Positions 15,834 to 39,789 of a DNA stretch of 45,878 nt are shown piece after piece (the first letter of the stretch is position 1; every line of letters starts with the position of its first letter). The notes under the pieces were generated by a model. The model saw only the letters and a program-made list of their open reading frames with translations, was not told the DNA's origin and did not search any database. Position numbers and translations under genes: made by a program. Origin of the DNA: Magnetovibrio sp. (GTDB lineage Bacteria > Pseudomonadota > Alphaproteobacteria > Rhodospirillales > Magnetovibrionaceae); NCBI GenBank assembly GCA_026196495.1, contig JAPHSY010000071.1:1-45878 (forward strand), given 5' to 3'.

Positions 15834-15844
15834 GGAGTTTGATC

Positions 15845-17341
15845 GTGGCTGACCAAAAATTTGAAACCCCAGCGTTACGCGAGTTCAGAGAAAATCCCGC
15901 CATCCAAAAAGACTCGATGGCTCACTCTCAACCGTTTATCGCCAAACCTGAACATAATGAGCCTTTGGGCTTTCCGGGCGAACTCGTCGATAACTGGGAA
16001 GAAAAAGCCGTTGCCAAATTGGGTGACTTGCTGGAAAAGAACCGTGCCCTGCGTGTGTACTTGGACAGCTGCGTCAAATGCGGTGCCTGCACCGATAAGT
16101 GCCATTACTTCTTAGGCACCGGTGATCCCAAAAACATGCCGGTCGCACGTCAAGATTTGCTGCGTTCACTCTATCGTCGTCACTTCACCTTGGCTGGTAA
16201 AATTGCACCAGGCCTGGTTGGCGCGAAAGACATGGACAAGGAAATGCTGGACGACTGGTACAAGTATTTCCACCAGTGTTCACAGTGCCGTCGTTGTTCA
16301 GTGTTCTGCCCTTATGGCATCGACACCGCTGAAATCTCCATGGCTGCACGCGATATCATGGACCACATCGGTGTTGGTCAAAAATACTCCAACGAAATTT
16401 TGGCCAAGGTTCACGTCATCGGCAACAACTTGGGTCTGCCTGAGCCTGCTCTGGCTGATACCCTGGAAGGTCTTGAAGAAGACGTGCTGGAAGATGATGA
16501 AGTGGAAGTTAAATTCCCACTTGATCAACACGGTGCCGATGTATTGTTGGTCACCCCATCGGCTGACTTCTTTGCTGAGCCTCACGTGGATGGTTTGATT
16601 GGCTACGCCAAAGTCTTCCACCAAGCTGGTATCAACTGGACTTTGTCGTCTCAAGCTTCTGAAGCTGCAAACTTCGCCATGTTCATTGGTTCTTACGAAC
16701 AAATGCACAAAGTTGCCAACCGCATCCGCAAAGCTGCGTTGGATCTGGGCGTTAAGCGTATCGTCTTCGGTGAATGTGGTCACGCTTGGCGCGTCGCCTA
16801 TTCGTTCTTGAACACCTTGGCTGGTCCTTGGGACTTCTTGGATCCGAACTATCCGGTTCCCCAACACATTCTGGAAGTGACCCATGGTTTGATTAAGTCA
16901 GGTGGCATTGTTCTCGACGCGGAAGCGAACGATGACAAGGTTTTGACATTCCATGACAGCTGCAACGTAGCCCGCGCATCGCGCATGGGTGACATGGAAG
17001 GCGGTCAATTTATCATCCCACGCGAAGTCATCAAGGCATCGTGTAACAACTACGTCGACATGGATCCGCAAACGATCCACGAAAAGACCTTCTGCTGCGG
17101 TGGCGGCGGTGGTCTGCTGACCGACGATTTGATGGAGCTGCGTGTTAAAGGTGCGCTTCCACGTATGGAAGCCTTACAGGACGTGGTTGATAATCACGGC
17201 GTCACACACTTGGCTGCAATTTGCGCCATCTGTAAGAGCCAATTCAGCAAGGTGATGCCATATTACGGTTTCTCCATGGATATGATTGTAAGCGTGCATC
17301 AACTGGTCGGTGAAGCGATTCAGTTGGGCGCTAAGGAATAA
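15845..17341 (+). CDS. dsrK: DsrK, HdrD-like iron-sulfur subunit
   Basis: About 498 residues. Two ferredoxin-type motifs are visible: CVKCGACTDKC (about 76-86) and CSQCRRCSVFC (about 145-155). Two CCG-type motifs follow, HDSCN near 377 and FCCGGGGG near 417, expected to bind the special cubane seen in HdrB/HdrD-like proteins. It is thought to react with the DsrC trisulfide/disulfide on the cytoplasmic side. The GTG at 15845 is chosen with GGAG 7 nt upstream; a TTG at 15839 lies too close to that site. It is tightly coupled to dsrM. Confidence 0.96.
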   Translation: MADQKFETPALREFRENPAIQKDSMAHSQPFIAKPEHNEPLGFPGELVDNWEEKAVAKLGDLLEKNRALRVYLDSCVKCGACTDKCHYFLGTGDPKNMPVARQDLLRSLYRRHFTLAGKIAPGLVGAKDMDKEMLDDWYKYFHQCSQCRRCSVFCPYGIDTAEISMAARDIMDHIGVGQKYSNEILAKVHVIGNNLGLPEPALADTLEGLEEDVLEDDEVEVKFPLDQHGADVLLVTPSADFFAEPHVDGLIGYAKVFHQAGINWTLSSQASEAANFAMFIGSYEQMHKVANRIRKAALDLGVKRIVFGECGHAWRVAYSFLNTLAGPWDFLDPNYPVPQHILEVTHGLIKSGGIVLDAEANDDKVLTFHDSCNVARASRMGDMEGGQFIIPREVIKASCNNYVDMDPQTIHEKTFCCGGGGGLLTDDLMELRVKGALPRMEALQDVVDNHGVTHLAAICAICKSQFSKVMPYYGFSMDMIVSVHQLVGEAIQLGAKE

Positions 17342-17436
17342 ACAAGTGGGCAAGACGGGATTACCCGCCGCCTCCTGAAAAAGACAGGGCAATTCACAGA
17401 GGGGCAAAAGCCCCCTTGCGAGGAAGGAAGAAAAAA

Positions 17437-19377
17437 ATGAATGCGGATCAGGCTTTAAATTGGACCCGTTATGAAGAGGGTGATCAAGTATACGACGACT
17501 TGCAGGAAAAGATTTTCCAGGCGGGTTGGTCTTATAAGTGCCCGACGTACGTACACCGCACACCACCATGCCAAGGTTCTTGCCCGTCTGGCCACGACAT
17601 CCGTGGTTGGTTGGCGATTGCACGCGGCATGGACAAGTCTCCGGTTGAAGGCCAACCTTGGCAAGAATATGCGTTCGAACGCATGGTCGAAGCCAACCCC
17701 TTCCCTGCCGTTATGGGTCGCGTTTGCCCCGCACCTTGTGAAGATGGCTGTAACCGCAACGAGGTCGATGATCAAGTTGGCATCAACGGTGTTGAACAAT
17801 ACGTCGGTGATTACGCCGTCGAAAATAAATTGAGTCTGCCAAAACCAGAAGCAGATACCGGCAAGAAAATTGCCGTCATCGGTGGTGGCCCAGGTGGCCT
17901 TTCCGCTGCATGGCAAATGCGCCGCAAAGGTCACAGCGTCACGGTTTTTGAAAAGCAAGAAAAACTCGGCGGTATGATGGCTTACGGTATCCCAGGCTAT
18001 CGCGTACCGCGAGACACTTTGGATGCTGAAATTGGGCGTATCTTGGACACTGGCGTTGAAGCCAAAACCGGTGTTGTAATTGGTAAAGATATCACCGTTG
18101 AACAACTTGAAGCCGACTACGATGCCATCTTCTGGGCCGTTGGCGCACAGAAAGGTCGCGGCTTGTTCTTGGACAGCTGGGAAGGCACCGAGAACTGCAT
18201 CAGCGGTGTCGCTTTCTTGGAAGCCTTTAACCAAGGTCGTTTGCACTACACCACCAAGAAAGTGGTTGTCGTCGGCGGTGGTGATACCTCTATCGACGTT
18301 GCATCTGTTGCGCGTCGCTTGGGCCACATCTCCACCATGGCAGAAAAGGATCGCCCTGAATCCATCGTCCTGGGCCACACGGCACACGATGTTGCTTCTG
18401 CGGCTCAACGTGAAGGCGTTGAATCCGTCCTGACTTCCTTGTTCCCGCTGGATGAAATGACCGCTTCCGAGCGTGAGCGTGAAGACGCAACCCGCGAAGG
18501 TGTGGAAATCAAAGGCGGCGTAATGCCGGTGGATATCGTCAAAGACGAAAATGGTCGCGCTACTGCACTGCGTATGTGCGAATGCACCATGGACGGCATG
18601 ACCCCGGTTCCGGTTGAAGGCACCGAATTCGATATCGAATGCGACCTAATCGTTTCTGCAATCGGTCAAATGGGTGACTTGGCTAATGGCCTTGAAAGTC
18701 TAGATAACGGCAAAGGCTTCATCGACACCAACAACATTTACCAAGTGAAGGGCAAAGATAAGCACTTCGCTGGTGGCGATATCATTCGTCCACACCTGTT
18801 GACCACGGCGATCGGCCACGGCTCTATCGCAGCGGAAAGCATGGATCATATGTTGGCAGGCACACCTGACGAACGCCGTCCGAAAGTTGATGCACACCAC
18901 TTCAGCCTGTTGGAAGAACTCTCCGCGCGTGGCCATAACCCGTCTGAGTATTCCATGGAACCTGTCCGTGGCACAGATTCTGACACATTTGCAATCCACA
19001 ACTACGAAGATCGTGCCAGCTCTCAAATCATCCCGCACGAAGACCTGTTCTTGGGCCACTACACCCATGATCCTGTTCAAAAACGTGCTGAAAAACACAT
19101 TGGTGCCGAAGAAGTTCTGGGTAACTTTGAAGAACGTCTGGTTGCGTTTAACGAAGAACAAGCTCAGCACGAAGGCGAACGTTGCATGAGCTGCGGCATG
19201 TGCTTCGAGTGTGACAACTGTGTCATTTTCTGTCCGCAAGATGCTGTATTCCGCGTCAAGCGCGACGAAAAGACCGTTGGGCGCTATGTTGCCACCGATT
19301 ATGCCAAGTGCATCGGTTGCCATGTCTGCCGCGATGTGTGCCCGACTGGCTACATCCAAATGGGTCTCGGTGAGTAA
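17437..19377 (+). CDS. dsrL: DsrL, FAD-dependent NAD(P)H oxidoreductase
   Basis: About 646 residues, related to the glutamate synthase small subunit. It has an N-terminal cysteine-rich segment (CQGSCPSGHDIRGWL and CPAPCEDGCNRNEVD), an FAD site IGGGPGGLSAAW, an NAD(P) site VVVGGGDTSIDVAS and an AIGQMGD turn. The C-terminus carries ferredoxin motifs: CMSCGMCFECDNCVIFCP and CIGCHVCRDVCP. In sulfur oxidisers it takes electrons from DsrAB and reduces NAD(P)+. The ATG at 17437 with AGGAAGG upstream is preferred over an upstream TTG at 17416. The 95-nt gap from dsrK has two small hairpins (CGGG-ATTA-CCCG and GGGGC-AAAA-GCCCC). Confidence 0.97.
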   Translation: MNADQALNWTRYEEGDQVYDDLQEKIFQAGWSYKCPTYVHRTPPCQGSCPSGHDIRGWLAIARGMDKSPVEGQPWQEYAFERMVEANPFPAVMGRVCPAPCEDGCNRNEVDDQVGINGVEQYVGDYAVENKLSLPKPEADTGKKIAVIGGGPGGLSAAWQMRRKGHSVTVFEKQEKLGGMMAYGIPGYRVPRDTLDAEIGRILDTGVEAKTGVVIGKDITVEQLEADYDAIFWAVGAQKGRGLFLDSWEGTENCISGVAFLEAFNQGRLHYTTKKVVVVGGGDTSIDVASVARRLGHISTMAEKDRPESIVLGHTAHDVASAAQREGVESVLTSLFPLDEMTASEREREDATREGVEIKGGVMPVDIVKDENGRATALRMCECTMDGMTPVPVEGTEFDIECDLIVSAIGQMGDLANGLESLDNGKGFIDTNNIYQVKGKDKHFAGGDIIRPHLLTTAIGHGSIAAESMDHMLAGTPDERRPKVDAHHFSLLEELSARGHNPSEYSMEPVRGTDSDTFAIHNYEDRASSQIIPHEDLFLGHYTHDPVQKRAEKHIGAEEVLGNFEERLVAFNEEQAQHEGERCMSCGMCFECDNCVIFCPQDAVFRVKRDEKTVGRYVATDYAKCIGCHVCRDVCPTGYIQMGLGE

Positions 19378-19413
19378 TCGGACTGATTGACTAGACTTAA
19401 GGAGGAACGTCGA

Positions 19414-19899
19414 ATGCGTTCGGCCTCTCGAATTCTGAGCCTCACAGTATTGGGGTTTGCTCTTCTCGCCATTGGACTGGGGATATCTTCCCCGGCCCAG
19501 GCTGGCGATGTGCCGCTGCCAAATCCGGCAAAAGCATTTAAGGGCGAACAATGTGTTGAACCCAATGACGTGATGCGCCGTAACCATTTTGAGTTTCTCA
19601 AACATCAGCGTGACGAAACGCTGCGCGAAGGGATCCGCGGTCAGAAGTACAGCTTGAATGACTGTGTTGATTGCCATGCTGTGAAGTCTCCGGACGTTGC
19701 AGGTGGCAAGGTGCGCACCCTCAAGCCCTTCTGCAAGGAATGCCACGATTACGCAGCCGTTTCGATTGATTGCTTTGCCTGCCACACGGGTGCTGCGGTA
19801 CCCGGTATCGGCAAGCAATCAGCCTTACCCAGTAATCACGACGTTACAAACGCGATTGCTGCCCTGGAAAAACACCTGGGGAAAGGCGCTGACCAATGA
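19414..19899 (+). CDS. dsrJ: DsrJ, periplasmic triheme cytochrome c
   Basis: A 161-residue protein. A signal sequence ends SSPAQA at residue 30 and may stay as an anchor. There are exactly three CxxCH heme sites: CVDCH (84-88), CKECH (107-111) and CFACH (120-124). C47 in GEQCVEP corresponds to the unusual cysteine heme ligand known for DsrJ. An AAGGAGG site precedes the ATG at 19414, so a TTG at 19387 is unnecessary. The stop overlaps the dsrO start (ATGA). Confidence 0.96.
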   Translation: MRSASRILSLTVLGFALLAIGLGISSPAQAGDVPLPNPAKAFKGEQCVEPNDVMRRNHFEFLKHQRDETLREGIRGQKYSLNDCVDCHAVKSPDVAGGKVRTLKPFCKECHDYAAVSIDCFACHTGAAVPGIGKQSALPSNHDVTNAIAALEKHLGKGADQ

Positions 19900-20645
19900 C
19901 GGATAAATCTATGAACAGTGTAGACAAAGCTCGTCGTAACTTGCTCAAAGGTGGCGCTGCAGCCGCAGTTGTGACCTTGGCACCGGGTGTAACCTTACAA
20001 ACGGTACAAGCAGCGGTAACCGGTCCGGCGACCAGTGCAAAACGTTGGGGCATGTTGGTTGATGCCAACGCACCTGAAGGTGTGTGGGACCTTGCGGTTG
20101 AAGCCTGCAAAGCCGAACAAGGCTGGGGCAAAACCGAAAACGTGAACCAAGCAACCGACCCGCAGTGGATCCGCAAAGTTTCGATCAAAGACCCGAAAAC
20201 GGGCGCCAAGGCAACCCTTCCGGTTATGTGCCAACACTGTGCCAAGCCACCGTGCGTTGATGTATGCCCCACAGGCGCATCCATGAAGCGCGCAGACGGT
20301 ATTGTCTTGGTCGACAAACACATCTGTATCGGCTGCCGCTTCTGCATGATGGCTTGCCCTTATTCTTGCCGTTCATTCGTACACGAAGATGTGCGCGGTC
20401 AAAAACCACATATGCCACGTGGCAAAGGCACCGTCGAAGCATGTACCATGTGTGTGCATCGCGTTGACAAAGGTCAAAAGCCTGCTTGTGTTGATGCCGT
20501 GAACGCTGCTGGTTCAAACGCCATCATCTTTGGTGATCTGAACGATCCAAATTCTGATATTGCCCGCGCAGTCTCTAAATTCGTGACCCAGCGCATCCGC
20601 TCTGACCTCGGTGTCGAGCCTGGCATCCATTACCGGGGGATTTAA
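19896..20645 (+). CDS. dsrO: DsrO, periplasmic Tat-exported ferredoxin subunit
   Basis: A 249-residue iron-sulfur protein. The Tat signal KARRNLLKGG has the twin arginines and is followed by a hydrophobic stretch ending near TVQA. Cysteine groups suitable for several [4Fe-4S] clusters follow: CQHCAKPPCVDVCP, CIGCRFCMMACPYSC and CTMCVHR with a later CVD. It acts with DsrJ and DsrP at the periplasmic face. It overlaps dsrJ by 4 nt, and dsrP starts 5 nt after its stop. Confidence 0.96.
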   Translation: MTDKSMNSVDKARRNLLKGGAAAAVVTLAPGVTLQTVQAAVTGPATSAKRWGMLVDANAPEGVWDLAVEACKAEQGWGKTENVNQATDPQWIRKVSIKDPKTGAKATLPVMCQHCAKPPCVDVCPTGASMKRADGIVLVDKHICIGCRFCMMACPYSCRSFVHEDVRGQKPHMPRGKGTVEACTMCVHRVDKGQKPACVDAVNAAGSNAIIFGDLNDPNSDIARAVSKFVTQRIRSDLGVEPGIHYRGI

Positions 20646-20650
20646 GGACT

Positions 20651-21868
20651 ATGGCTGCTGATACCACCGTATACAAAGAAATCGAAGGCAAAGGCGGAGA
20701 TTACTTTTCGCTGATTGGCTGGCTGGGTGTAATGATCTTGGCTGCGCTTTATGCCGTTTACAATATGGAACACCATGGCCATGTGGTCACAGGAATGACC
20801 AACGCCGTTGTTTGGGGAACCCCCCACGTGCTGGCAATCTTCTTGATTGTTGCAGCTTCCGGTGCCTTGAACGTGGCTTCCATCTCATCCGTCTTTGGCC
20901 GCACCCACTACAAGCCCTTGTCGCGTATTTCCGCGCTGACAGCCGTGGCTTTGCTGGCTGGTGGCCTGATGGTGTTGGTGCTTGATCTGGGCCGGCCCGA
21001 TCGTTTGATTGTGGCCATGACCTACTACAACTTCAAATCCATCTTTGCTTGGAACATCATTCTCTATAACGGCTTCTTCGTAATCGTTTTGGCCTATCTG
21101 TGGATGATGATGGAACGCCGCATGAACCCGCATTCCAAGAAAATTGGTATGATGGCCTTTCTCTGGCGTTTGATCCTAACCACTGGTACTGGCTCAATCT
21201 TCGGTTTCCTTGTAGCCCGTCCTGGTTATGACGCTGCTATCATGGCACCGCTGTTTATCGCCATGTCGTTCGCATTTGGTTTGGCATTCTTCATCATTAT
21301 GATCAGTGTCAGCTACAAAGCATCTGACCGTCCGCTAGGTGATTTCATCCTGTTCAAAATGCGCAATCTTTTGGGTGTGTTTATTGCCGCAGTTCTGTAC
21401 TTTACAGCCGTGCAACACCTAACCAATCTGTATGCTGCTGAACACGCTGGCATCGAAGCTTTTATCCTATGGGATGGCGGCATCTACACTTTCTTGTTCT
21501 GGGTCGTACAGATCGGCCTCGGCAGCTTGATCCCGTTGGCAATCTTGTTTAACCCGGCATCAGGACGTTCCTGCCAAGGCATTATGACAGCCGCAGGTTT
21601 GGTCATCATCGGTGGCATTGCTCAACTCTATGTCATCATCATTGGTGGACAAGCGTTCCCACTACAACTCTTCCCTGGCATGGAAGTATCTTCCAGCTTC
21701 TTCGATGGTGCAGTGCATTCGTATGCACCAAGCCACTGGGAAGTCATGCTTGGTTTGGGTGGCATCGCCGCTGCGATCTTGATCATTGTGATTGCTGTGA
21801 AATACCTGCCTTTGCTGCCGACCAGCTTATCTGATGCAAAAATTGACCCGCATCACAAAGTAAAATAA
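20651..21868 (+). CDS. dsrP: DsrP, NrfD-family quinone-interacting membrane subunit
   Basis: A 405-residue protein with about ten hydrophobic helices of the NrfD/PsrC type, completing DsrMKJOP. Family marks include the LVLDLGRPDRL segment and the FNPASGRS region. It is expected to exchange electrons with quinones and DsrO. AAGGA overlaps the dsrO stop at a short spacing, consistent with coupling. A terminator follows. Confidence 0.95.
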   Translation: MAADTTVYKEIEGKGGDYFSLIGWLGVMILAALYAVYNMEHHGHVVTGMTNAVVWGTPHVLAIFLIVAASGALNVASISSVFGRTHYKPLSRISALTAVALLAGGLMVLVLDLGRPDRLIVAMTYYNFKSIFAWNIILYNGFFVIVLAYLWMMMERRMNPHSKKIGMMAFLWRLILTTGTGSIFGFLVARPGYDAAIMAPLFIAMSFAFGLAFFIIMISVSYKASDRPLGDFILFKMRNLLGVFIAAVLYFTAVQHLTNLYAAEHAGIEAFILWDGGIYTFLFWVVQIGLGSLIPLAILFNPASGRSCQGIMTAAGLVIIGGIAQLYVIIIGGQAFPLQLFPGMEVSSSFFDGAVHSYAPSHWEVMLGLGGIAAAILIIVIAVKYLPLLPTSLSDAKIDPHHKVK

Positions 21869-27278: not shown

Positions 27279-30200
27279 TTATATGTCGCGACCAAGCGCC
27301 TTGGAGAGGATCATATACAATTTTCCCATGTCAGACGACAAAAAAGTATTCTCTAATACACCATCATGGTCACGTTCACGTGCTTTTTCCATCATAGAGT
27401 TAAACTCACTGACATAGCGCCCCACATATTCGCGAAATTCACCATCCTGTTGATGAACATTCTTGATTGCCGCCAACGTGTTCTTTTCTTTGAAGCCCAG
27501 CATTTTGCGCACAAAAATGCCTTTTTCACCTTTGTTGAACCGGCGCCAGTCGTCTTCAGAAATGGGGACTTCAACAATTCGCGCCAAATCAACCGCAAGC
27601 GACTGCAATTTTTCAGTGATAAATGCCGAACGACGCATGAAGTCTTCGACGTGTGCGCGGTCCAAAGTGGAATCCAAGCTTTGATTGAGGTTTTGGGCAT
27701 GATGCACAGCCGCCATCAAATCACGCGTCCCCTTGTCGACCTTGGCACCGACATGTTCCAATTCACGCGACACAGTTTGGGATGCCTCGGTCAAATCCTG
27801 AACACGTTCACGCAAGGTTTGATCCCATGCCACGATGCGGGTTAGAGATTCTTCCGTAACACTGGCCACAGTCATGCTTTGTTTTTCCAAAGCATTGCCC
27901 AACAAGTCGGCACCTTTTTCAGCCCGTTCATACATACGATTTAAATCGTTCAACTGACCACGTGCACGTTCATGGGTCATATTCATGGTATCGGAAACCA
28001 TTTCTACATCACGGATACTGTCTTTGGTCTGACGTTCCACTTGCTCCAAGAACGTGCGGATAGATGCCATACTTTCATCCGTTAGATGTTCAATCCCACG
28101 CGCCTGATTATCAAATACAGTACTGACATGGCTCATTTTCGCCATGGCTTCATCTGTGCTTGTCACAACGTCACGGCTTTGATTGCGCAGGGTATTGCCT
28201 ACATCTTCGAGTTTTGTCGTCGCCTGTGTTGAAGCCGCATTCAGCTCATTGAGTTGTTGGCGTAAGGTCTCACCGGCACCATCCAAATTACGCACGGTGA
28301 TGTCGGAGACACGCGACATATCCCCGGCGGAGCGTTGAATCAGATCGCTAACCCGCTCTAACTCACCCGCAGCCCGCTCAGAGGCCGCCCCCAGGTCAGA
28401 GGTCTGATGATGGAACGCATTGGTCACCAAGTCGATAAGCTTGGCCGCTTTATCAACCGATTGATTGACGCCATGTACTTCTTCATTCAAACGCGCACCA
28501 ACTTCACCAAGTTTCCCAGCTGCCCGGTCCGATGCTTCCATCAAGCCACCCGCTTGGCGGTGCATATCTTCGGAAAACGTACGGATATGGTCGGATGCAC
28601 GCGTGTAGGACTGGGTCATGTCTTCGGTACGGCGAGACAACAAACCACCCAAATCTTCCAAGCGATCCCCGGCGCGATCCAACGCGGTATCCAAATCACT
28701 CGTATGACGCCGGAAAGTTTCCGATATCCCTTCCATGCGATCACCCGCTTGATGCGTGGTACGCGATGCTTCTTCAGCGCGTTCCGTAATGCGGCGTGCC
28801 ACCCCATCCAAACTACGTTCAGCACTTTCTATCCGTTGTGAAACAACACGCTCTCCATCCACCAAAGCATCGGTAACATTGCGCACACGACCAACGGCAT
28901 CGTCACTCACAGTTTGCAAACTGAAAGCACTTTCTTTCAGCTTTTCACCGGTATCTAACAAGCGATTGGTGGCTTGGGTGCCCAAATCATCAAGTTCACG
29001 GGTATGCTCTTTGATGGTATCACCCATAACATCAATACGTTCAGCAGCTTGCTTTGAAGCATCCGTCAAACCAGCCGTCTGACGATGCAAAGCATCCGAT
29101 ACCAACGAAATCAAACGTGCTGCACGGTCGGATGCAGACCCCACATCGCGTGAACGTTCCAACAATGCTGCTGTGGCTTTATCAACATTTTCAACTGCCG
29201 ATGAAGTCACGCGTTCAACACTTTCGGTAGAACCACCCAAGGTTTCACTTACGGTTTCCAAACGAGTTGTCGCTTCATCGGAACTGGACATCAGATCATT
29301 TAAGCTTTGGCGGACAGCATCCCCCAGTTCACGCAAACGATTTTCTGCACGATCTGAAACATCTTCCATTTGTTCCGTACGGTCATTTAAGTTTTCAGAG
29401 GCAGACATCACCAATTTGCCTGTGCGAGCCGCAACAAAAATCATCTGTTCAGTTTGTTTTTGCAGCTCATCACCAGCATCATTTAACTTATCGGCTGCAT
29501 GATCTGTGATGGTTTCCAACAGATGCGCGCGTTCTTGTACTGTTTCGCCCAAGTCATTTAATTTTGTTACGGTGTCATTGGAAGTTGCTTTTACATCTTG
29601 TAAGTGTTCTCGGAATTGATCCGTGGTTTTCGCGGTCTTTTGAGATGACTCGTTGATAGCATCAATACCTTCCTTAATTGAGCGTGTTGCACCAGCAATG
29701 GATTGCGCACTATTTTGTGCACTGGAAGAAATACGTTTGGCCCCCTCTTCCATAATACGGGTCGCTTCTGAAAGCGCGGCTTGCGCTTGTGATGATTTGC
29801 CATCCAATTCGGTCGAACTGTCTTGCAGTCGTTCAGTCACACTCGCAATACCCTCAATGCCGGTAAGGGTTGCGGACTTAATATTCTCAGATTGAATTTT
29901 TAATGTATCGGCTGCATCTTGGAGACGGCGTTCGCTATCTTCACCTGTTTGCACCAGTTCGTCTGCACGCGATTGCAGCGCCTTGCCAACTGTTTCAACC
30001 TGATCCAAAGCCTTGGCAGAAATGTGGCTTAAATCCATCGAAGTCTTGCGCAACAGTTCACGAACCTGACCAGATTGCTCTGCGGTGCTATCGGCTGTGG
30101 TAGCCATTGTTTTCGCTTCAGTCTGGAACGCCTCACCAGCCGCTTTCATACGCAAAGCAACCAAGTCAGAAGCCGCGACCAATTCATGCGCATGTTCACC

Positions 30201-31400
30201 CATGGTTTCAGACATGGACTTAATACGTGAACTGACATTATCGGCCGTTTGATTCAGGGCTGTAGTTTGACGTTCCAAATGGCCTTCAACTTCACCCGCA
30301 TGGGCAGCCGCATCCAATGCAGCACGTTCCAAGTCGGCCTGCTGACGACGCAAGGTTTCACCAATGCGGTCAGTTTGCGCTTCCATGCGGTCACCACGTG
30401 CGCCCAACTCAGCCCCTGCGCCGGAAATCAATTCAGAACCAACCTCCATGCGCTTTAACGCATCTTCGGTGGCTGAGTTCATTTTGCTAATGCGCTCATT
30501 CAATATTTCACCAACAGATTCAGCCCGCGCAGACGTCTCTGCGGAAATACGCATCATCTCTTCACTGCGTTGATGAAAAGTATCAGCCACTTCCAAGGCA
30601 TGGCGCGATCCGGTATCGGAAACATCTGCCAAATCTTGAACACGGCGTTCCAAAACTTCGACCAAATCTTCGGCACGGGTACTGGCCCGATCTGTCGCAG
30701 TGGCAATTTCATGACCACGACGATGAAGCACATCGCTAACGCTTTGGGCGCGATCTTCAGCTTTTTCAGACACCACACGTAATTCTTCAGTTTCACGTGA
30801 CAAGGCTTCCGCTACCGCACGTGCACGCAAATCTGCGTCTTCTGAAACACGAGACAGTTCCAGGGTACGTTCGCGCACTTGCGTCGTAATCGCCTCAGCC
30901 CGATTATAGGCTTCATCCGATGCCTTGGTTAGGTCACGAGCCTGAGAACGCAAGCTGTCGGTAATTTCTTTGACCCGGCTTTCAGAACGATCCGTTGGAT
31001 ACGTCAATTGACGAATTTGCCAACGCAACTGTCCTGTTTCACTGCGCAAGCTGTGGCCACGTTCAAACAACGCAATCACCATCCACAACAATGCGATTGG
31101 GGTGAAAATACCTGCTGCCAAACCACCAAGTTCATGGGGCAGCAATTCAAACAAGAGATCCCACCCCACATAGGTGGAAATGTAGTCGTTTGTGACCCAA
31201 AGCCAGCCCACCGTAAGCATGGCACCAAAGCCCGTCGCCAGCTTGTAGCGAAGGTAGAACGGTTCTGACCACTCATCATATTGCTGAGGCGTCGGTTGCG
31301 CCTCTTCGGGCATTGCGATCTGGTCTTCTCCATCCAAAAGAAGATCATGCCGAGGTGCATTTTGGTCTGTGTTGTTTTGGTTCTCAGAACCCGTAACCAT
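27279..31400 (-). CDS. Giant membrane-anchored coiled-coil protein with about 45 exact 25-residue repeats
   Basis: About 1373 residues. The N-terminus (1-50) is polar. Two transmembrane helices follow at about 55-77 and 90-113, so both ends should be cytoplasmic. From about 130 to 1250 the chain is one uninterrupted array of 25-residue units; only one unit is short (21). In each unit L occupies position 4, S/T-D/E positions 8-9, A 11, R 14, V/I 18, L 22 and R/Q/E often 25. The core pattern 4-3-4-3-4-3-4 equals two heptads plus a hendecad. A globular C-terminus (about 124 residues, with WRRFNKGEKGIFVRKMLGF and LGRDI at the end) has no motif I know. The topology recalls the polarity factor TipN, but identity is not claimed. 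GGAAG lies 4 nt before the ATG at 31400; a GTG at 31403 abuts it. The gene is monocistronic, with its own promoter and terminator. Confidence 0.85.
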   Translation of the reverse strand: MVTGSENQNNTDQNAPRHDLLLDGEDQIAMPEEAQPTPQQYDEWSEPFYLRYKLATGFGAMLTVGWLWVTNDYISTYVGWDLLFELLPHELGGLAAGIFTPIALLWMVIALFERGHSLRSETGQLRWQIRQLTYPTDRSESRVKEITDSLRSQARDLTKASDEAYNRAEAITTQVRERTLELSRVSEDADLRARAVAEALSRETEELRVVSEKAEDRAQSVSDVLHRRGHEIATATDRASTRAEDLVEVLERRVQDLADVSDTGSRHALEVADTFHQRSEEMMRISAETSARAESVGEILNERISKMNSATEDALKRMEVGSELISGAGAELGARGDRMEAQTDRIGETLRRQQADLERAALDAAAHAGEVEGHLERQTTALNQTADNVSSRIKSMSETMGEHAHELVAASDLVALRMKAAGEAFQTEAKTMATTADSTAEQSGQVRELLRKTSMDLSHISAKALDQVETVGKALQSRADELVQTGEDSERRLQDAADTLKIQSENIKSATLTGIEGIASVTERLQDSSTELDGKSSQAQAALSEATRIMEEGAKRISSSAQNSAQSIAGATRSIKEGIDAINESSQKTAKTTDQFREHLQDVKATSNDTVTKLNDLGETVQERAHLLETITDHAADKLNDAGDELQKQTEQMIFVAARTGKLVMSASENLNDRTEQMEDVSDRAENRLRELGDAVRQSLNDLMSSSDEATTRLETVSETLGGSTESVERVTSSAVENVDKATAALLERSRDVGSASDRAARLISLVSDALHRQTAGLTDASKQAAERIDVMGDTIKEHTRELDDLGTQATNRLLDTGEKLKESAFSLQTVSDDAVGRVRNVTDALVDGERVVSQRIESAERSLDGVARRITERAEEASRTTHQAGDRMEGISETFRRHTSDLDTALDRAGDRLEDLGGLLSRRTEDMTQSYTRASDHIRTFSEDMHRQAGGLMEASDRAAGKLGEVGARLNEEVHGVNQSVDKAAKLIDLVTNAFHHQTSDLGAASERAAGELERVSDLIQRSAGDMSRVSDITVRNLDGAGETLRQQLNELNAASTQATTKLEDVGNTLRNQSRDVVTSTDEAMAKMSHVSTVFDNQARGIEHLTDESMASIRTFLEQVERQTKDSIRDVEMVSDTMNMTHERARGQLNDLNRMYERAEKGADLLGNALEKQSMTVASVTEESLTRIVAWDQTLRERVQDLTEASQTVSRELEHVGAKVDKGTRDLMAAVHHAQNLNQSLDSTLDRAHVEDFMRRSAFITEKLQSLAVDLARIVEVPISEDDWRRFNKGEKGIFVRKMLGFKEKNTLAAIKNVHQQDGEFREYVGRYVSEFNSMMEKARERDHDGVLENTFLSSDMGKLYMILSKALGRDI
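27654..31016 (-). repeat. Array of about 45 degenerate 75-bp (25-codon) units within the coiled-coil gene
   Basis: Reading the protein in blocks of 25 from the unit that begins IRQLTYPTDR keeps the same register through about 45 units, with a single 4-residue deletion in the unit beginning KATSNDTV. Units differ strongly in sequence, so this is an old array, not a recent tandem expansion. Confidence 0.85.
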
Positions 31401-31451
31401 CACTCTTCCGTCCAGGCTAAGGCTATTTTAGCCTATTTTTCATTGGCAGAG

Positions 31452-34192: not shown

Positions 34193-35091
34193 ATAAAAAT
34201 CTCCCGGATATTCGTGGATGGGCTGCTTTGCGCGCCGTGGTGGAAAAAGGAAGTGTGTCTGCAGCCGCTCATACGTTAAACGTCGGCCAGCCTGCCGTCA
34301 CCAAACGCATCAGCACCTTGGAAGACAGCTATGGCTTAACCTTGATCGAGCGCTCCGGCGGGCGTATGCGTCTGACTGAGGCAGGCGAAAAAGTCTATTT
34401 ATTAGCTGTACAGACACTGGACCGGCAGTTGTCCTTGCGCCAAGAACTGGCCGACCTAGCACAAGGTAGGACCACGCTGCACTTAGATGTCACCATCGCC
34501 ATCGGCGAGCACTTTTTACCGAAACTATTGCTCAGGTTTGCAGAATTGCACCCCGATTACCGAATCAATTCACGTTTGGTCTATGGTCGCCAGAGCGAAA
34601 ACAGCCTTGCACGCGGCCTGACAGACCTTGCCCTATTGGAACGCCCACCCGAACATCCTGACCTGATGGTACAAAAATGGATGGATGATGAACTGTTGTT
34701 GGTATGTGGTCCCGACCACCCCCTGGTAGAGGAAGACATGATCCCCATTCCGATGCTGCTGGACCTGACCTATGTTTTGCGCGAACCTGGATCATCATCC
34801 CGTTTGGACCTAGATGAGGCCCTAGAACGCATTGGCATTCATAGATTGGATGTTGCCCTTGAGGTCGGCGCAACAGATGCCCTGGTAGATGTTTTGGTCC
34901 CCGGCCAGCATGTCAGCTTCTTGCCGCGATTTGCCGTGGAACAACACATTCAATCGGGACGGCTTCATCACATCAAAGTCACAAATTTTCGCATCATGCG
35001 AACTCTGTGGATCGCACGCCACCGCGGTAACATCGACCATCCCGTGGCAGATGCCCTCATTTCCGTCATTCGTGCAGAAATGCCGACTTAA
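34186..35091 (+). CDS. LysR-family transcriptional regulator
   Basis: A 301-residue regulator. The winged helix-turn-helix at about 10-68 reads GSVSAAAHTLNVGQPAVTKRIS followed by LIERSGGRMRLTEAG. The effector-binding domain starts near 98 (LDVTIAIGEHFLPKLL). Its divergent position from the small TM-Usp-TSUP group and the two matching dyads in the shared gap make that group and itself the likely targets. The effector may be a sulfur anion, which is inference. The stop codon overlaps the convergent SDR stop by 4 bp. Confidence 0.92.
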   Translation: MEYKNLPDIRGWAALRAVVEKGSVSAAAHTLNVGQPAVTKRISTLEDSYGLTLIERSGGRMRLTEAGEKVYLLAVQTLDRQLSLRQELADLAQGRTTLHLDVTIAIGEHFLPKLLLRFAELHPDYRINSRLVYGRQSENSLARGLTDLALLERPPEHPDLMVQKWMDDELLLVCGPDHPLVEEDMIPIPMLLDLTYVLREPGSSSRLDLDEALERIGIHRLDVALEVGATDALVDVLVPGQHVSFLPRFAVEQHIQSGRLHHIKVTNFRIMRTLWIARHRGNIDHPVADALISVIRAEMPT

Positions 35092-35828
35092 TACATATGT
35101 TGACCACCAGTGACCCAGATTTCAGTCCCAGTGACATAGTTGCTGTCATCCGAACAAAGATAATAGATCGTGCTGGCGACATCACGCGGCGCCCCCATGC
35201 GATCCAATGGAATGCGGGGAATAAGGGCTTCATATTCCGGCTGGATCATTGACGTTTCAATTTCACCTGGTGCCACAGCATTGACCCGCACATCCAAAGC
35301 CGCAAACTCCCCAGCCATTTCACGAGTCATGGCGCTGAGGGCAGCTTTTGAAATGGAATAGGCTGAACCTGCAAATGGATGGATGTAGTGCCCGGCAATA
35401 GAGGTGATGTTAACAATTGCACCTTTGGCATTGTGAAGCGCAGAAGCAAATCCGCGCGACAAGCGCAGGCTGGCGAAAAAATTAATCTCAAAAACTTCCC
35501 GCCATGCATCTAAATCACCGTTCAAACACCCCAAACGTTCCTTAAAAGGTGTTTTGGGTGAGAGCCCTGCGTTATTCACCAAGGCATTGAGCGGACGACC
35601 TTCTAAGACCTTAGAGGCTTGTTGGATAAAAGCTTGGACACTGTCGGCATCGGCTAAATCCGTTGGAATGTGGGCAAGCCAATTGTCATTGTCCACAAAT
35701 TCAGCAGGCACATCGCCGCGTGCACAGGTGATCACCTGCCAGCCGCGTTCCAAAAACAATTGTGCCGTGGCAAAGCCAATGCCACGTGATGCACCTGTGA
35801 TGATGACTGTTTTAATATCCTCGTTCAT
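35088..35828 (-). CDS. Short-chain dehydrogenase/reductase
   Basis: A 246-residue classical SDR. The cofactor loop is TGASRGIGFA, followed by NNAG (NALVNNAGLS), the catalytic serine region NITSIAG, and Y-x3-K in SAYSISKAA. The PG-type segment NAVAPGEIET follows, and GTEIWVTGGQ ends the chain. The CAR motif after the second strand suggests NADP(H) preference. The substrate is unknown. It is convergent with lysR and has no operon partner. Confidence 0.9.
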   Translation of the reverse strand: MNEDIKTVIITGASRGIGFATAQLFLERGWQVITCARGDVPAEFVDNDNWLAHIPTDLADADSVQAFIQQASKVLEGRPLNALVNNAGLSPKTPFKERLGCLNGDLDAWREVFEINFFASLRLSRGFASALHNAKGAIVNITSIAGHYIHPFAGSAYSISKAALSAMTREMAGEFAALDVRVNAVAPGEIETSMIQPEYEALIPRIPLDRMGAPRDVASTIYYLCSDDSNYVTGTEIWVTGGQHMY

Positions 35829-38250: not shown

Positions 38251-39789
38251 TTACAGGCCTAAAATCTTAAGTGCTTGAGCATCTGTCTCTGTGCACGAAG
38301 CGGATGAATCGATCTTATGCCAATCCATTTCACCCAAATCATAATCCAACTGCATCCGCACCACCGCCGCATCGGCATCAGATGGGTTGTTCACACGTTT
38401 TGAGACACGTTCTTGCATAATTTCGGGGGAGGCCTCCAGCCAGAAACCATCAAATGGCACACCACAATCAGCAGCCACCCGGGCAATGGCTTCACGTTCA
38501 TGAGGTTTGGAAAACACACAATCAGCAATTACAGAATGCCCCGTTTCCAAGGCCTCATGGGCCATGTCATAAACCGCCTGATAAGTCTGTTCTGACATTA
38601 GGGGGGTATAGCTTTCCGGCGGCAATTTATCCAAGGGATGAACCCCTGCAATGCGTTTGCGCAAAACGTCACTGCGCACCACACGGGCACCGGGTGCGGC
38701 ACCAATATGTTGGGCTAAGTCTCGCCCCATACGTGACTTACCACTGCCAGACAATCCACCCACGGCAATCAGGCGAGGTTCGGGTATAACGAGATAATTG
38801 AGCGCCATATCTAAATACGATTTGGCTTCTTCCCCTTGGGCTATTTTGAAAGCTTCATCATCAACACTTTGTGCAGCCGCACAAGCCACAAAAGACCGCA
38901 CAGCGGCACGCACACTTAAGAACAATGGCAAGACACTAAGACCTGCGGCTTCCCCCATAATATCAAGATATCGGTTCATCGTAACGTTGGCCAACGTACG
39001 CAATCCGCGATGGTCCAAATCCATCAGCAAGAAAGCCAGATCATAAAGCACATCAATGGTGGAAAACGCTTCGTTAAATTCGATACAATCGAACAGAACG
39101 GGCTCGCCATCTTCTAAGAAGATGTTACGCAGATGCATGTCACCGTGACAGTGACGCACAAATCCGTTCAAACGTCGGCTCTGCAACAATTGGCCATGAT
39201 GGTTTGCGACATCGAGAGAATGATCGGTTAGTTCCCGCACTTGCACCATGTCCAAAATACCTTGAGCATTTTCTGCAAACGCTTTGGCATTGCTTTCAAT
39301 GGTGAGCGCTATTCCGGTACGCCCACCACCGTCTTCGCGGGCCTGTGCTGCAGCGTGGAAGCTTGCGATCTTATCGGCTAGATGCTCCATCAAGTGGCGA
39401 TCAAGCTTGCCCTCTTCAGCCAAACGATCAAACAGGGTGCCTTCATCAAAACGCGCCATTTCTATGACCCAATCAACCATTTTCCCTGGTTCATTGAGAT
39501 GTAGTTTACCATCATCGCCCCGGGTAATGGGCAAGACTCCCCGATATAAGTTTGGGGCTGTGCGACGATTGAGTTTGACTTCAGCCTTACAATTTTTCAA
39601 ACGCTTGTCGCAATCGGAATAGTCCAAAAATGGATATTCGACAGCGCGCTTTAACTTGAATACGCGGGTCTTGCCGATAAACACTTCGGAAGCATGAGTG
39701 GTGGAACGCCCAACGATTTCTGTACCATCCCCAAATACCGTTGGATCGGACAACAATTGGACTTGTTCAGACTGGTCTTCTTTAATCAT
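38251..39789 (-). CDS. Fusion of aminoglycoside-phosphotransferase-like and P-loop kinase domains
   Basis: A 512-residue protein. The N-terminal part (about 25-330) has a phosphotransferase-like fold with HCHGDMHLRNIF (catalytic loop) and LFDCIEFNE (metal site). The C-terminal part (about 345-512) is a P-loop kinase with Walker A GGLSGSGKSRMGRDLA and a DCVFSKPHERE region. This fused form is known as an uncharacterised family; no substrate is established and antibiotic resistance should not be assumed from the name. No clear ribosome site. The downstream neighbour is the second double Usp. Confidence 0.85.
   Translation of the reverse strand: MIKEDQSEQVQLLSDPTVFGDGTEIVGRSTTHASEVFIGKTRVFKLKRAVEYPFLDYSDCDKRLKNCKAEVKLNRRTAPNLYRGVLPITRGDDGKLHLNEPGKMVDWVIEMARFDEGTLFDRLAEEGKLDRHLMEHLADKIASFHAAAQAREDGGGRTGIALTIESNAKAFAENAQGILDMVQVRELTDHSLDVANHHGQLLQSRRLNGFVRHCHGDMHLRNIFLEDGEPVLFDCIEFNEAFSTIDVLYDLAFLLMDLDHRGLRTLANVTMNRYLDIMGEAAGLSVLPLFLSVRAAVRSFVACAAAQSVDDEAFKIAQGEEAKSYLDMALNYLVIPEPRLIAVGGLSGSGKSRMGRDLAQHIGAAPGARVVRSDVLRKRIAGVHPLDKLPPESYTPLMSEQTYQAVYDMAHEALETGHSVIADCVFSKPHEREAIARVAADCGVPFDGFWLEASPEIMQERVSKRVNNPSDADAAVVRMQLDYDLGEMDWHKIDSSASCTETDAQALKILGL

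What the first reader, a model, noticed from the sequence alone, without database searches (positions are those of the whole stretch)
27279..31400. A 1.37-kilo-residue protein built from about 45 copies of an exact 25-residue coiled-coil unit
Seen directly: from about residue 130 to 1250 the chain stays in a 25-residue register, with one 4-residue deletion in the whole array. Key residues recur at L4, S8, D9, A11, R14, V18 and L22. Core spacing 4-3-4-3-4-3-4 is two heptads plus a hendecad, which would give a nearly straight, weakly supercoiled rod. If fully helical the rod would be roughly 165 nm (about 1120 residues at 0.15 nm). Two N-terminal TM helices anchor it, and an unrecognised 124-residue domain caps the far end. 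Such length and regularity suggest a ruler, tether or filament scaffold in the cytoplasm. TipN (two TMs plus coiled coil, polarity) is the nearest analogue I can name, by topology only.
Basis: partly seen in the sequence, partly recalled or inferred. Interest (0 to 1): 0.8.

Follow-up and report, generated by a model that had tools for sequence, protein, structure and literature searches.

The report
Fixed-length polar scaffold rod, TipN/GPR kin
This gene encodes a membrane-anchored protein whose very long, very regular helical rod belongs with a family of bacterial cell-pole scaffolds (GPR, RgsE, probably TipN), and in many related species the rod has kept the same length to the residue while its sequence changed greatly.

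Summary
The 1374-aa ORF (27279-31403, minus) has a 25-residue register over residues 136-1250, one 4-residue skip near residue 593 and no proline from 137 to 1279. Membership rests on two end modules, a membrane hairpin and a C-terminal domain of about 124 aa without a Pfam, NCBIfam or PDB family. Distant Rhodospirillales homologues of RgsE, and GPR-TipN similarity, are already in print. Not found in print: the 25-residue register, the fixed length and its quanta. Rod length is exactly 1115 in 21 of 35 measured clade members (window included), gap-free down to 22% identity; the other 14 differ by -1, +7, +11, +22, +44, +55, +121, +196, +563, +588 or +784. The 196-residue step (8x25-4) is a skip-bearing module amplified in three families. 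SMC arms in the same genomes are even more length-constant, so this shows a strict coiled-coil constraint, not a proven ruler. Most likely it is an inner-membrane-anchored spacer of about 165 nm that scaffolds polar or envelope machinery; its role in this order is untested.

The parts
27279..31403 (-). CDS of the rod protein, 1374 aa, GTG start; one match in its genome
31062..31241 (-). N-terminal membrane hairpin (TM1 about residues 55-75, TM2 about 92-114; limits approximate)
   Evidence: alignment of 40 rows (three invariant columns); hydropathy (TM2 clear, TM1 weak); model (pLDDT 72.0, pTM 0.27, two-row alignment)
27654..30998 (-). Rod, residues 136-1250 (1115 aa): 25-residue register, hydrophobic period 25/7, no proline after residue 136
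30786..30968 (-). Conserved island near the membrane, residues 146-206
   Evidence: 25-residue windows 182-206 (0.672) and 146-170 (0.629) against a rod median of 0.368
29514..30101 (-). Approximate single-copy equivalent (about residues 435-630) of the 196-residue module amplified in relatives; boundaries uncertain
   Evidence: mapped from L033 by eye
29574..29678 (-). The only register skip (4 residues), placed at residue 593; segment shown is residues 576-610
29079..29153 (-). Conserved island in mid-rod, residues 751-775 (SRDVGSASDRAARLISLVSDALHRQ): candidate binding site
   Evidence: mean pairwise identity 0.659
27282..27653 (-). C-terminal domain, residues 1251-1374: mostly helical in the model, no described family, hallmark of the family
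   Evidence: 43 rows, 64% mean column identity; distribution; model (pLDDT 76.6, pTM 0.55, two-row alignment); (no family)

Best explanation
The protein is the GPR/RgsE/TipN-family scaffold of this Magnetovibrio-like alphaproteobacterium. Shown by sequence: a membrane hairpin, an uninterrupted 1115-residue 25-register coiled-coil-type rod, and a conserved C-terminal domain. Inferred: two or more chains form a parallel, weakly supercoiled rod about 165 nm long. The hairpin anchors it in the inner membrane. The islands at residues 146-206 and 751-775 and the C-terminal domain bind partners such as polar, Tol-Pal, chromosome-partition or wall-synthesis proteins. The rod holds these sites at fixed spacing and rotational phase. 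Because phase, and to some degree length, are under selection, the rod tolerates mostly phase-preserving changes: heptads, hendecads and 196-residue modules.
For: Both ends are shared with proteins of the published GPR layout: hairpin, PF01442-type helical rod, Pro-rich stretch, C-domain (L212-L215, L217; PF01442 scanned for L212 and L214). Both ends are also found in 821-1179-aa proteins of the Caulobacter-like family f82. Genomes with the C-domain mostly have one match. GPR and RgsE are membrane-anchored, cytoplasmic and at the growing pole; GPR lacking its last 10 aa does not restore normal shape and GPR lacking 221 aa complements worst (PMC8262873, parts 1-4 of 6; PMC7327166, passages). 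Rod length is exactly 1115 in 21 of 35 distinct clade members, window included, with no gap in any of 210 pairs and identity down to 0.218. The 4-residue skip is at the corresponding place in 22 of 22 clade members scanned. 1115 is found on both sides of the clade's deepest fork. Skip-bearing 196-aa modules were amplified.
Against: I found no localisation, interaction or phenotype for a member of this order. The gene has no constant neighbour. MreB is present in this genome and nearly all relatives, so a growth-pole role like GPR's is not implied. PF01442, a described feature of GPR, is absent here. 14 of 35 clade members do not have rod length 1115, and families f34, f60, f86, f88, f97, f133, f135 and f139 vary. 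SMC arms have fewer indels than this rod in the same pairs. One paper says that most alphaproteobacterial genomes do not encode TipN (PMC5182065, passage), and another describes the C-termini of GPR and TipN as disordered (PMC13170164, passage), unlike the helical C-domain modelled here. Oligomer state and orientation are untested.
Confidence: 0.57

Rival explanations
1. The length is fixed only because a continuous coiled coil cannot absorb indels (phase constraint); absolute length carries no function, and the protein is a generic membrane-tethered scaffold.
For: SMC arms in the same genomes show 0 gaps in 17 of 17 usable pairs, against 12 of 17 for this rod. Small departures are heptad or hendecad sizes (+7, +11, +22). 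L033 and L034 carry rods 53% and 70% longer. In GPR, deleting about 20 aa of predicted coiled coil in A-IV-4 gave the most severe interference (PMC8262873).
Against: Whole 25-residue units could be gained or lost in phase, yet 21 of 35 rods keep exactly 1115 at median pairwise identity 0.335. Other families mostly keep their own constant among the members that I measured: 786 in 4 of 4, 870 in 4 of 5, 698 in 3 of 3. The similar small deletion in GPR A-IV-1 still complemented well (PMC8262873).
Confidence: 0.42
2. The rod is a self-associating filament (like a myosin rod or intermediate filament): 25-residue units let neighbouring rods bind with regular staggers, and the 196-residue module sets a larger stagger.
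For: Regular repeats with a positive-charge component at 12.4 residues, close to 25/2. The 196-residue module was amplified repeatedly. GPR forms a ring read as a hexamer (PMC8262873).
Against: No charge-stagger calculation was done. GPR shows ring foci rather than filaments, and its paired foci form without the last 332 aa (PMC8262873).
Confidence: 0.2
3. An apolipoprotein-like lipid-binding protein whose helices fold back on each other, as proposed for GPR.
For: The published view of GPR rests on PF01442 (PMC8262873, part 4). Relatives L127, L212 and L214 match PF01442 at 1.7e-41, 4.2e-51 and 3.7e-73; L033 and L083 give sub-threshold matches near 2e-4.
Against: The window protein has no PF01442 match at E<=1, no proline over 1143 residues to make turns, and an unbroken register apart from one 4-residue skip.
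Confidence: 0.08

Closest known systems
GPR, growth pole ring protein (Agrobacterium tumefaciens Atu1348, 2115 aa; PMC8262873)
   Same: Two N-terminal TM, very long helical cytoplasmic rod, essential C-terminus; proteins of this layout in families f88, f175 and f179 match both end profiles.
   Different: GPR-type rods that I scanned have 11/22/44-residue periods and PF01442, plus a Pro-rich linker before the C-domain. The window rod has a 25-residue register, no PF01442 and no linker. The GPR sequence itself was not available to compare.
RgsE (Sinorhizobium meliloti SMc00190, 2089 aa; PMC7327166)
   Same: 42% identical to GPR, membrane-anchored and cytoplasmic; its authors report more distant homologues in Emcibacterales and Rhodospirillales, which appears to cover this protein's kind.
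   Different: Acts in unipolar growth of an order where MreB is mostly missing (PMC7327166, passage). The window's genome and nearly all its relatives have MreB.
TipN (Caulobacter crescentus, 882 aa; PMC13170164 and PMC9178275, passages)
   Same: Two N-terminal TM and a large C-terminal coiled coil; proteins of that size in the Caulobacter-like family f82 match both end profiles.
   Different: Shorter rod, weaker 25-residue periodicity and diverged C-domain in f82. The TipN sequence itself was not available to compare.
SMC coiled-coil arms (PMC5344682, abstract)
   Same: Length-constrained coiled coil that works only in periodic length regimes; indel-free in the same genomes.
   Different: Arm of an ATPase with no homology seen; SMC arm segments score negative on the 25-residue profile.

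Membership tests
GPR/RgsE | N-terminal TM hairpin module | tested here: met
   GPR-layout proteins L212-L215 and L217 match the hairpin profile at E 6e-13 to 4e-19 (E-values for a small set of ORFs)
GPR/RgsE | C-terminal domain at the extreme C-terminus | tested here: met
   Same five proteins, C-domain E 2e-18 to 2e-40 (small set of ORFs); 43-row alignment
GPR/RgsE | PF01442 apolipoprotein-type rod | tested here: not met
   Window: no PF01442 at E<=1; L212 4.2e-51, L214 3.7e-73
GPR/RgsE | Pro-rich linker before the C-domain | tested here: not met
   Window has no proline from residue 137 to 1279; L212-L215 and L217 have 12-19 Pro in their densest 110-residue bin near the C-domain
GPR/RgsE | Growth-pole ring and requirement for polar growth | not testable with these tools
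   Needs imaging and genetics
TipN | Large C-terminal coiled coil | tested here: met
   TipN description from PMC9178275, passage
TipN | Two N-terminal TM helices | tested here: inconclusive
   TM2 clear, TM1 below my hydropathy threshold though helical in a weak model
TipN | Sequence homology to TipN itself | tested here: inconclusive
   20 loci, chosen from 40 f82 genomes because they had matches, all encode 821-1179-aa proteins matching both ends; f82 is labelled Caulobacter-like by HfaD only; no TipN sequence was available
TipN | New-pole localisation, ParA and TipF binding | not testable with these tools
   A PopZ-family protein is present in the genome; nothing else tested
Apolipoprotein PF01442 | Profile match over curated cut-off | tested here: not met
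SMC / MCE / ZorA (weak NCBIfam hits) | Score over curated cut-off | tested here: not met
   47.8 of 567.35 bits, 50.8 of 140.5, 23.1 of 190

The most novel reading that the evidence does not exclude
Alphaproteobacterial pole scaffolds of the TipN/GPR/RgsE family are true molecular rulers. Many lineages have a set rod length (about 165 nm here) that fixes the distance between the membrane and the C-terminal docking domain, and length evolves in quanta, including a skip-bearing 196-residue (about 29 nm) module amplified more than once. The Rhizobiales GPR rod would then be an extended rod rather than a folded apolipoprotein.
Probability: 0.25. Interest if true: 0.8.

Novelty: new variant of a known kind. 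Interest (0 to 1): 0.5.

Why it matters
How GPR and TipN build a pole from hundreds to thousands of helical residues is unknown, and the GPR authors assume that the chain folds up. The 25-residue, proline-free rod and its fixed length in many relatives give a sharp model, an extended phase-locked spacer, that can be tested by removing or adding whole units. The undescribed C-terminal domain gives a simple marker for the family across Alphaproteobacteria and a defined target for partner searches. If length is functional, this would be a bacterial counterpart of spacer coiled coils and of tuned SMC arms.

Tried and rejected
Generic Pfam and NCBIfam hits to the rod (DUF948, IFT57, SMC, MCE, ZorA and others) were all below curated cut-offs. 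PDB sequence hits at E<=0.01 were two designed helical proteins near 0.002. CcfM, the Magnetospirillum curvature coiled coil, was considered because the one named close relative is Magnetovibrio blakemorei; only one passage about it was seen (PMC9512821), no sequence was available, and it was not tested. A link to magnetosomes was dropped because the protein is spread through the order; magnetosome genes were not searched. L127 (2115 aa, the published GPR length) was first taken for GPR itself and rejected: it has no proline between 155 and 2022, while GPR has a Pro-rich region at 1890-2000. A claim that freedom from indels is unusual was withdrawn after the SMC control. A constant neighbour was sought and not found. 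A viral-contig scan with the C-domain gave no relative. A Foldseek search of the C-domain model gave nothing at E<=0.001.

Rows dropped before counts; nine rows without both ends (L021, L028, L030, two ORFs of L036, L043, L047, L048, L049) and two small paralogues (L050, L051) whose C-domain alignments are spurious; L031 equals L004 in every measured value and was counted once; five divergent members (L032, L041, L042, L044, L045; rods 654-911) are outside the 35-member clade. G043 was dropped because the longest ORF in its SMC locus was not SMC; the SMC arm limits (175-490, 670-1000) were my approximation; 22 of the 35 clade members were scanned; in L240 and L241 the centre was the longest ORF and not the target, so 14 of 16 loci are properly centred.
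Full report
Observation. The ORF at 27279-31403 on the minus strand encodes 1374 aa and gives the only match in its own genome. A 25-residue period is beyond doubt: autocorrelation z is 14 to 22 at lags 25 to 150 against a shuffle maximum of 4.0, and bulky hydrophobics recur every 3.57 = 25/7 residues. A profile trained on residues 606-1250 of 11 relatives (one of the same family, ten of other families) scores the window's residues 136-580 at +292 bits with no register break, against a best of -176 for 200 shuffles and -94 for 200 heptad-block shuffles; two SMC arm segments score negative. The only register break over residues 136-1250 is a 4-residue skip at about residue 593. In the second half the bulky hydrophobics sit at unit positions 4, 15, 18 and 22 (occupancy 0.92, 0.92, 0.73, 0.96), with mostly small residues at S8 and A11. 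There is no proline from 137 to 1279. With 3.60 to 3.64 residues per helix turn, a 25/7 core implies a left-handed supercoil of 28-68 nm pitch, against 14-19 nm for heptads (arithmetic).

Relatives in the order. 52 of 60 genomes, the window's own included, have a match, 35 of 39 among the good-quality ones. The one named relative is Magnetovibrio blakemorei MV-1, 74% identical; its measured values equal those of G004 in the window's genus. I measured the distance between the membrane module and the C-domain. Among 35 distinct full-length members of one supported clade (100/99), 21, the window included, have exactly 1115 residues. In a MAFFT alignment of these 21 with L025, no pair of the 21 has a gap in the rod (210 pairs); rod identity goes down to 0.218, median 0.335. 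The other 14 differ by -1 (1), +7 (1), +11 (2), +22 (3), +44 (1), +55 (1), +121 (1), +196 (1), +563 (1), +588 (1) and +784 (1). On the tree, drawn with a midpoint root, 1115 lies on both sides of the clade's deepest fork, so it is most simply ancestral, and the departures fall on about ten separate branches; several of these forks are weakly supported.

The skip and the 196-residue module. I scanned 22 of the 35 clade members; 22 of 22 have the 4-residue skip at the corresponding place (592-642 in their own numbering); several have further jumps, mostly near the rod ends or in the length variants. The five divergent members lack it there. Skips lie 196 residues apart at 594, 790, 986 and 1182 in L033 and at 602, 798, 994, 1190 and 1386 in L034; L035 has two skips placed 199 apart; L038 has skips at 599, 758, 955 and 1171. 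Identity at lag 196 is 0.64 overall in L033 and L034 (single 50-residue windows up to 0.96), 0.26 in L035 (0.3-0.46 within the block) and 0.33 in L038, where lag 392 gives 0.34. So a module of 8 x 25 - 4 residues that contains the skip was tandemly amplified in families f11, f9 and f23. The nearest relatives on the tree (f15 for f11; L015 and others for L035) include rods of 1115, which argues for separate events in f11 and f9; L038 sits on an unresolved branch.

Control. In the same genomes I aligned SMC, a known length-constrained coiled coil, with arm limits set by me. In 17 usable pairs with the window's species the SMC arms have no gap in 17 of 17, at identity 0.42-0.89; the rod has no gap in 12 of the same 17. 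So the rod is less length-constant than SMC arms, and lack of indels is not special to it. What differs is that the rod diverges faster (0.23-0.36 in the nine most distant pairs, against 0.42-0.51 for SMC arms) and still often keeps its length. Burmann and colleagues report that the Smc arm works only in periodic length regimes (PMC5344682, abstract and section list seen).

Wider family. A profile of the C-domain (43 rows) finds 153 of 387 genomes in the class, mostly one match each, and 126 of 396 in a phylum-wide draw; every matching genome listed is of the same class. How many genomes of other classes were in that draw is not stated, so absence elsewhere is only indicative. Rod length from the end of the N-profile (1076 on this scale for the window) among the members that I fetched and measured is 786 in 4 of 4 (f119), 698 in 3 of 3 (f62), 712 in 2 of 2 (f43), 870 in 4 of 5 (f108; the fifth 816), 797 in 4 of 5 (f64; the fifth 796), 1106 in 4 of 5 (f89; the fifth 1102), 1048 in 3 of 4 (f67; the fourth 1110) and 534 in 2 of 3 (f163; the third 538). 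It varies in f34, f60, f86, f97, f133 and f135 and in f88 and f139; the four f86 lengths 1623, 1645, 1667 and 1799 differ by multiples of 22. Not every matching genome was fetched. Twenty-five or its multiples is the top lag in most of the families measured; f86 favours 69 and 11, f60 favours 47, and f88, f175 and f179 favour 11/22/44.

Identity of the family. Proteins from f88, f175 and f179 (L212-L215, L217) have the published GPR layout: hairpin, 11/22/44-residue rod, Pro-rich stretch, C-domain. L212 and L214 match PF01442 at 4.2e-51 and 3.7e-73. For GPR the paper gives 2115 aa, two N-terminal TM, a Pro-rich region at 1890-2000, abnormal shape when the last 10 aa are missing, and the weakest complementation when 221 aa are missing; the longer deletion of 332 aa kept more function than the 221-aa one but did not restore normal shape (PMC8262873, parts 1-4 of 6 read). 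RgsE (2089 aa) is 42% identical to GPR, cytoplasmic and membrane-anchored, and gives two-hybrid signals with TolQ and RgsA and a weaker one with RgsS. Its authors report more distant homologues in Emcibacterales and Rhodospirillales and suggest a different role there (PMC7327166, passages). The window protein appears to be one of that kind. Family f82 is marked Caulobacter-like because HfaD passes its cut-off only in two f82 genomes of 387 and in the control C. vibrioides; seven other genomes (f33, f95, f133) have matches below the cut-off. In f82, 26 of 40 genomes have a C-domain match at E<=10 and 23 of 40 a hairpin match at E<=1. In 20 loci chosen because they had such matches, all 20 proteins (821-1179 aa) match both end profiles after the profiles were widened to 105 and 95 segments (E-values are for a small set of ORFs). 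TipN is 882 aa (PMC13170164, passage) and has two N-terminal TM and a large coiled coil (PMC9178275, passage); GPR is described as similar to TipN in one paper (PMC8546619, passage) and as analogous in another, which calls the N- and C-termini of both disordered (PMC13170164). A further paper says that most alphaproteobacterial genomes do not encode TipN (PMC5182065, passage). I could not fetch the TipN, GPR or RgsE sequences, so TipN membership is probable and not proven.

C-domain and hairpin. The C-domain has no Pfam or NCBIfam family in 43 members scanned (best chance-level matches 0.0048 and 0.0058), no convincing PDB sequence match (best E 0.0092 to designed proteins) and no fold match at E<=0.001. 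A two-row AlphaFold model gives one long helix running from the rod into a helical domain (best model pLDDT 76.6, pTM 0.55; the five models average 46 to 77). The N-terminal model shows helices for the hairpin and one continuous helix after it (pLDDT 72.0, pTM 0.27). Both are single-chain and weakly informed.

Conserved islands. Within the rod the most conserved 25-residue windows are 182-206, 751-775 and 146-170 (0.672, 0.659, 0.629 against a median of 0.368). These and the C-domain are the best candidates for partner binding.

Context. Neighbours are a TauE-type exporter, Usp proteins, EamA and a CbiX protein, with cobalamin-type genes further downstream. Among 16 compared loci, 14 of them properly centred, no neighbour is constant: downstream convergent cobalamin-type genes recur, and an SDR gene is present in 8 of 16 (7 of 14). 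A PopZ-family protein is present in the genome. MreB is present in the window's genome; of 60 genomes (own included) 55 have a match below 1e-100, two more have partial matches at 1.8e-86 and 2.4e-71, and three (G038, G044, G049) have only weak matches that may be Hsp70-like (the Hsp70 reading is recalled). The role therefore need not be polar growth as in Rhizobiales.

Mechanism. I think it most likely (0.57) that this is an inner-membrane-anchored polar or envelope scaffold whose extended rod spaces binding sites at fixed distance and phase. Shown: end modules, register, skip, proline-free rod, length pattern. Inferred: oligomer state, extended shape, polar location, partners. A pure phase constraint without a length function is the main rival (0.42) and overlaps with it. 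In GPR, deletion of about 20 aa of predicted coiled coil in A-IV-4 gave the most severe interference, as a phase-locked rod might predict, but the similar deletion in A-IV-1 complemented well (PMC8262873). The GPR authors infer folding because foci are 50 nm and give 600 nm for an extended 1700-residue helical part; at 0.15 nm per residue a helix of that length is 255 nm (my arithmetic).

Novelty. The family is known and distant homologues in this order are in print. My searches did not show a description of the 25-residue register, the fixed length or the 196-residue module. The 2019 GPR paper could not be read and subscription papers on TipN are not held, so this is not a proof of absence.

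Noticed in passing
L047-L051 (G020, G005, G033, G007, G035): Small 307-351-aa proteins share the membrane hairpin module with this family but not the C-domain, so the hairpin seems to be reused with other, shorter tails.
   Followed up: partly
family f49 genomes (e.g. G269, G763, G790): Short open frames of about 330-480 aa carry a weak, partial match to the C-terminal domain and have little room for a rod, as if the C-domain also works without the spacer.
   Followed up: no
L094 (G178) and L216 (G134): Family members with a strong 29-residue period (L094: z 10.4 at 29, 8.5 at 58; L216: z 12.3 at 29) instead of 25.
   Followed up: no
L180 (G456): f82 family member (1179 aa) with a strong 22-residue period (z 11.8) in a family where periods are otherwise weak.
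   Followed up: no
window 35088-35828 (-) and relatives: An SDR-type oxidoreductase gene lies near the rod gene in 7 of 14 properly centred loci and directly upstream on the same strand in L236 and L238; possible chance synteny.
   Followed up: partly
window 38251-39789 (-): A 512-aa protein that combines an APH-type phosphotransferase region (residues 108-282) with a P-loop kinase region of AAA_33/Zeta_toxin type (337-482).
   Followed up: no
window 15839-21868 (+): Genes for iron-sulphur (Fer4), pyridine-nucleotide oxidoreductase and NrfD-type membrane proteins lie close together, possibly one redox complex; the genes between 19387 and 20645 were not scanned.
   Followed up: no
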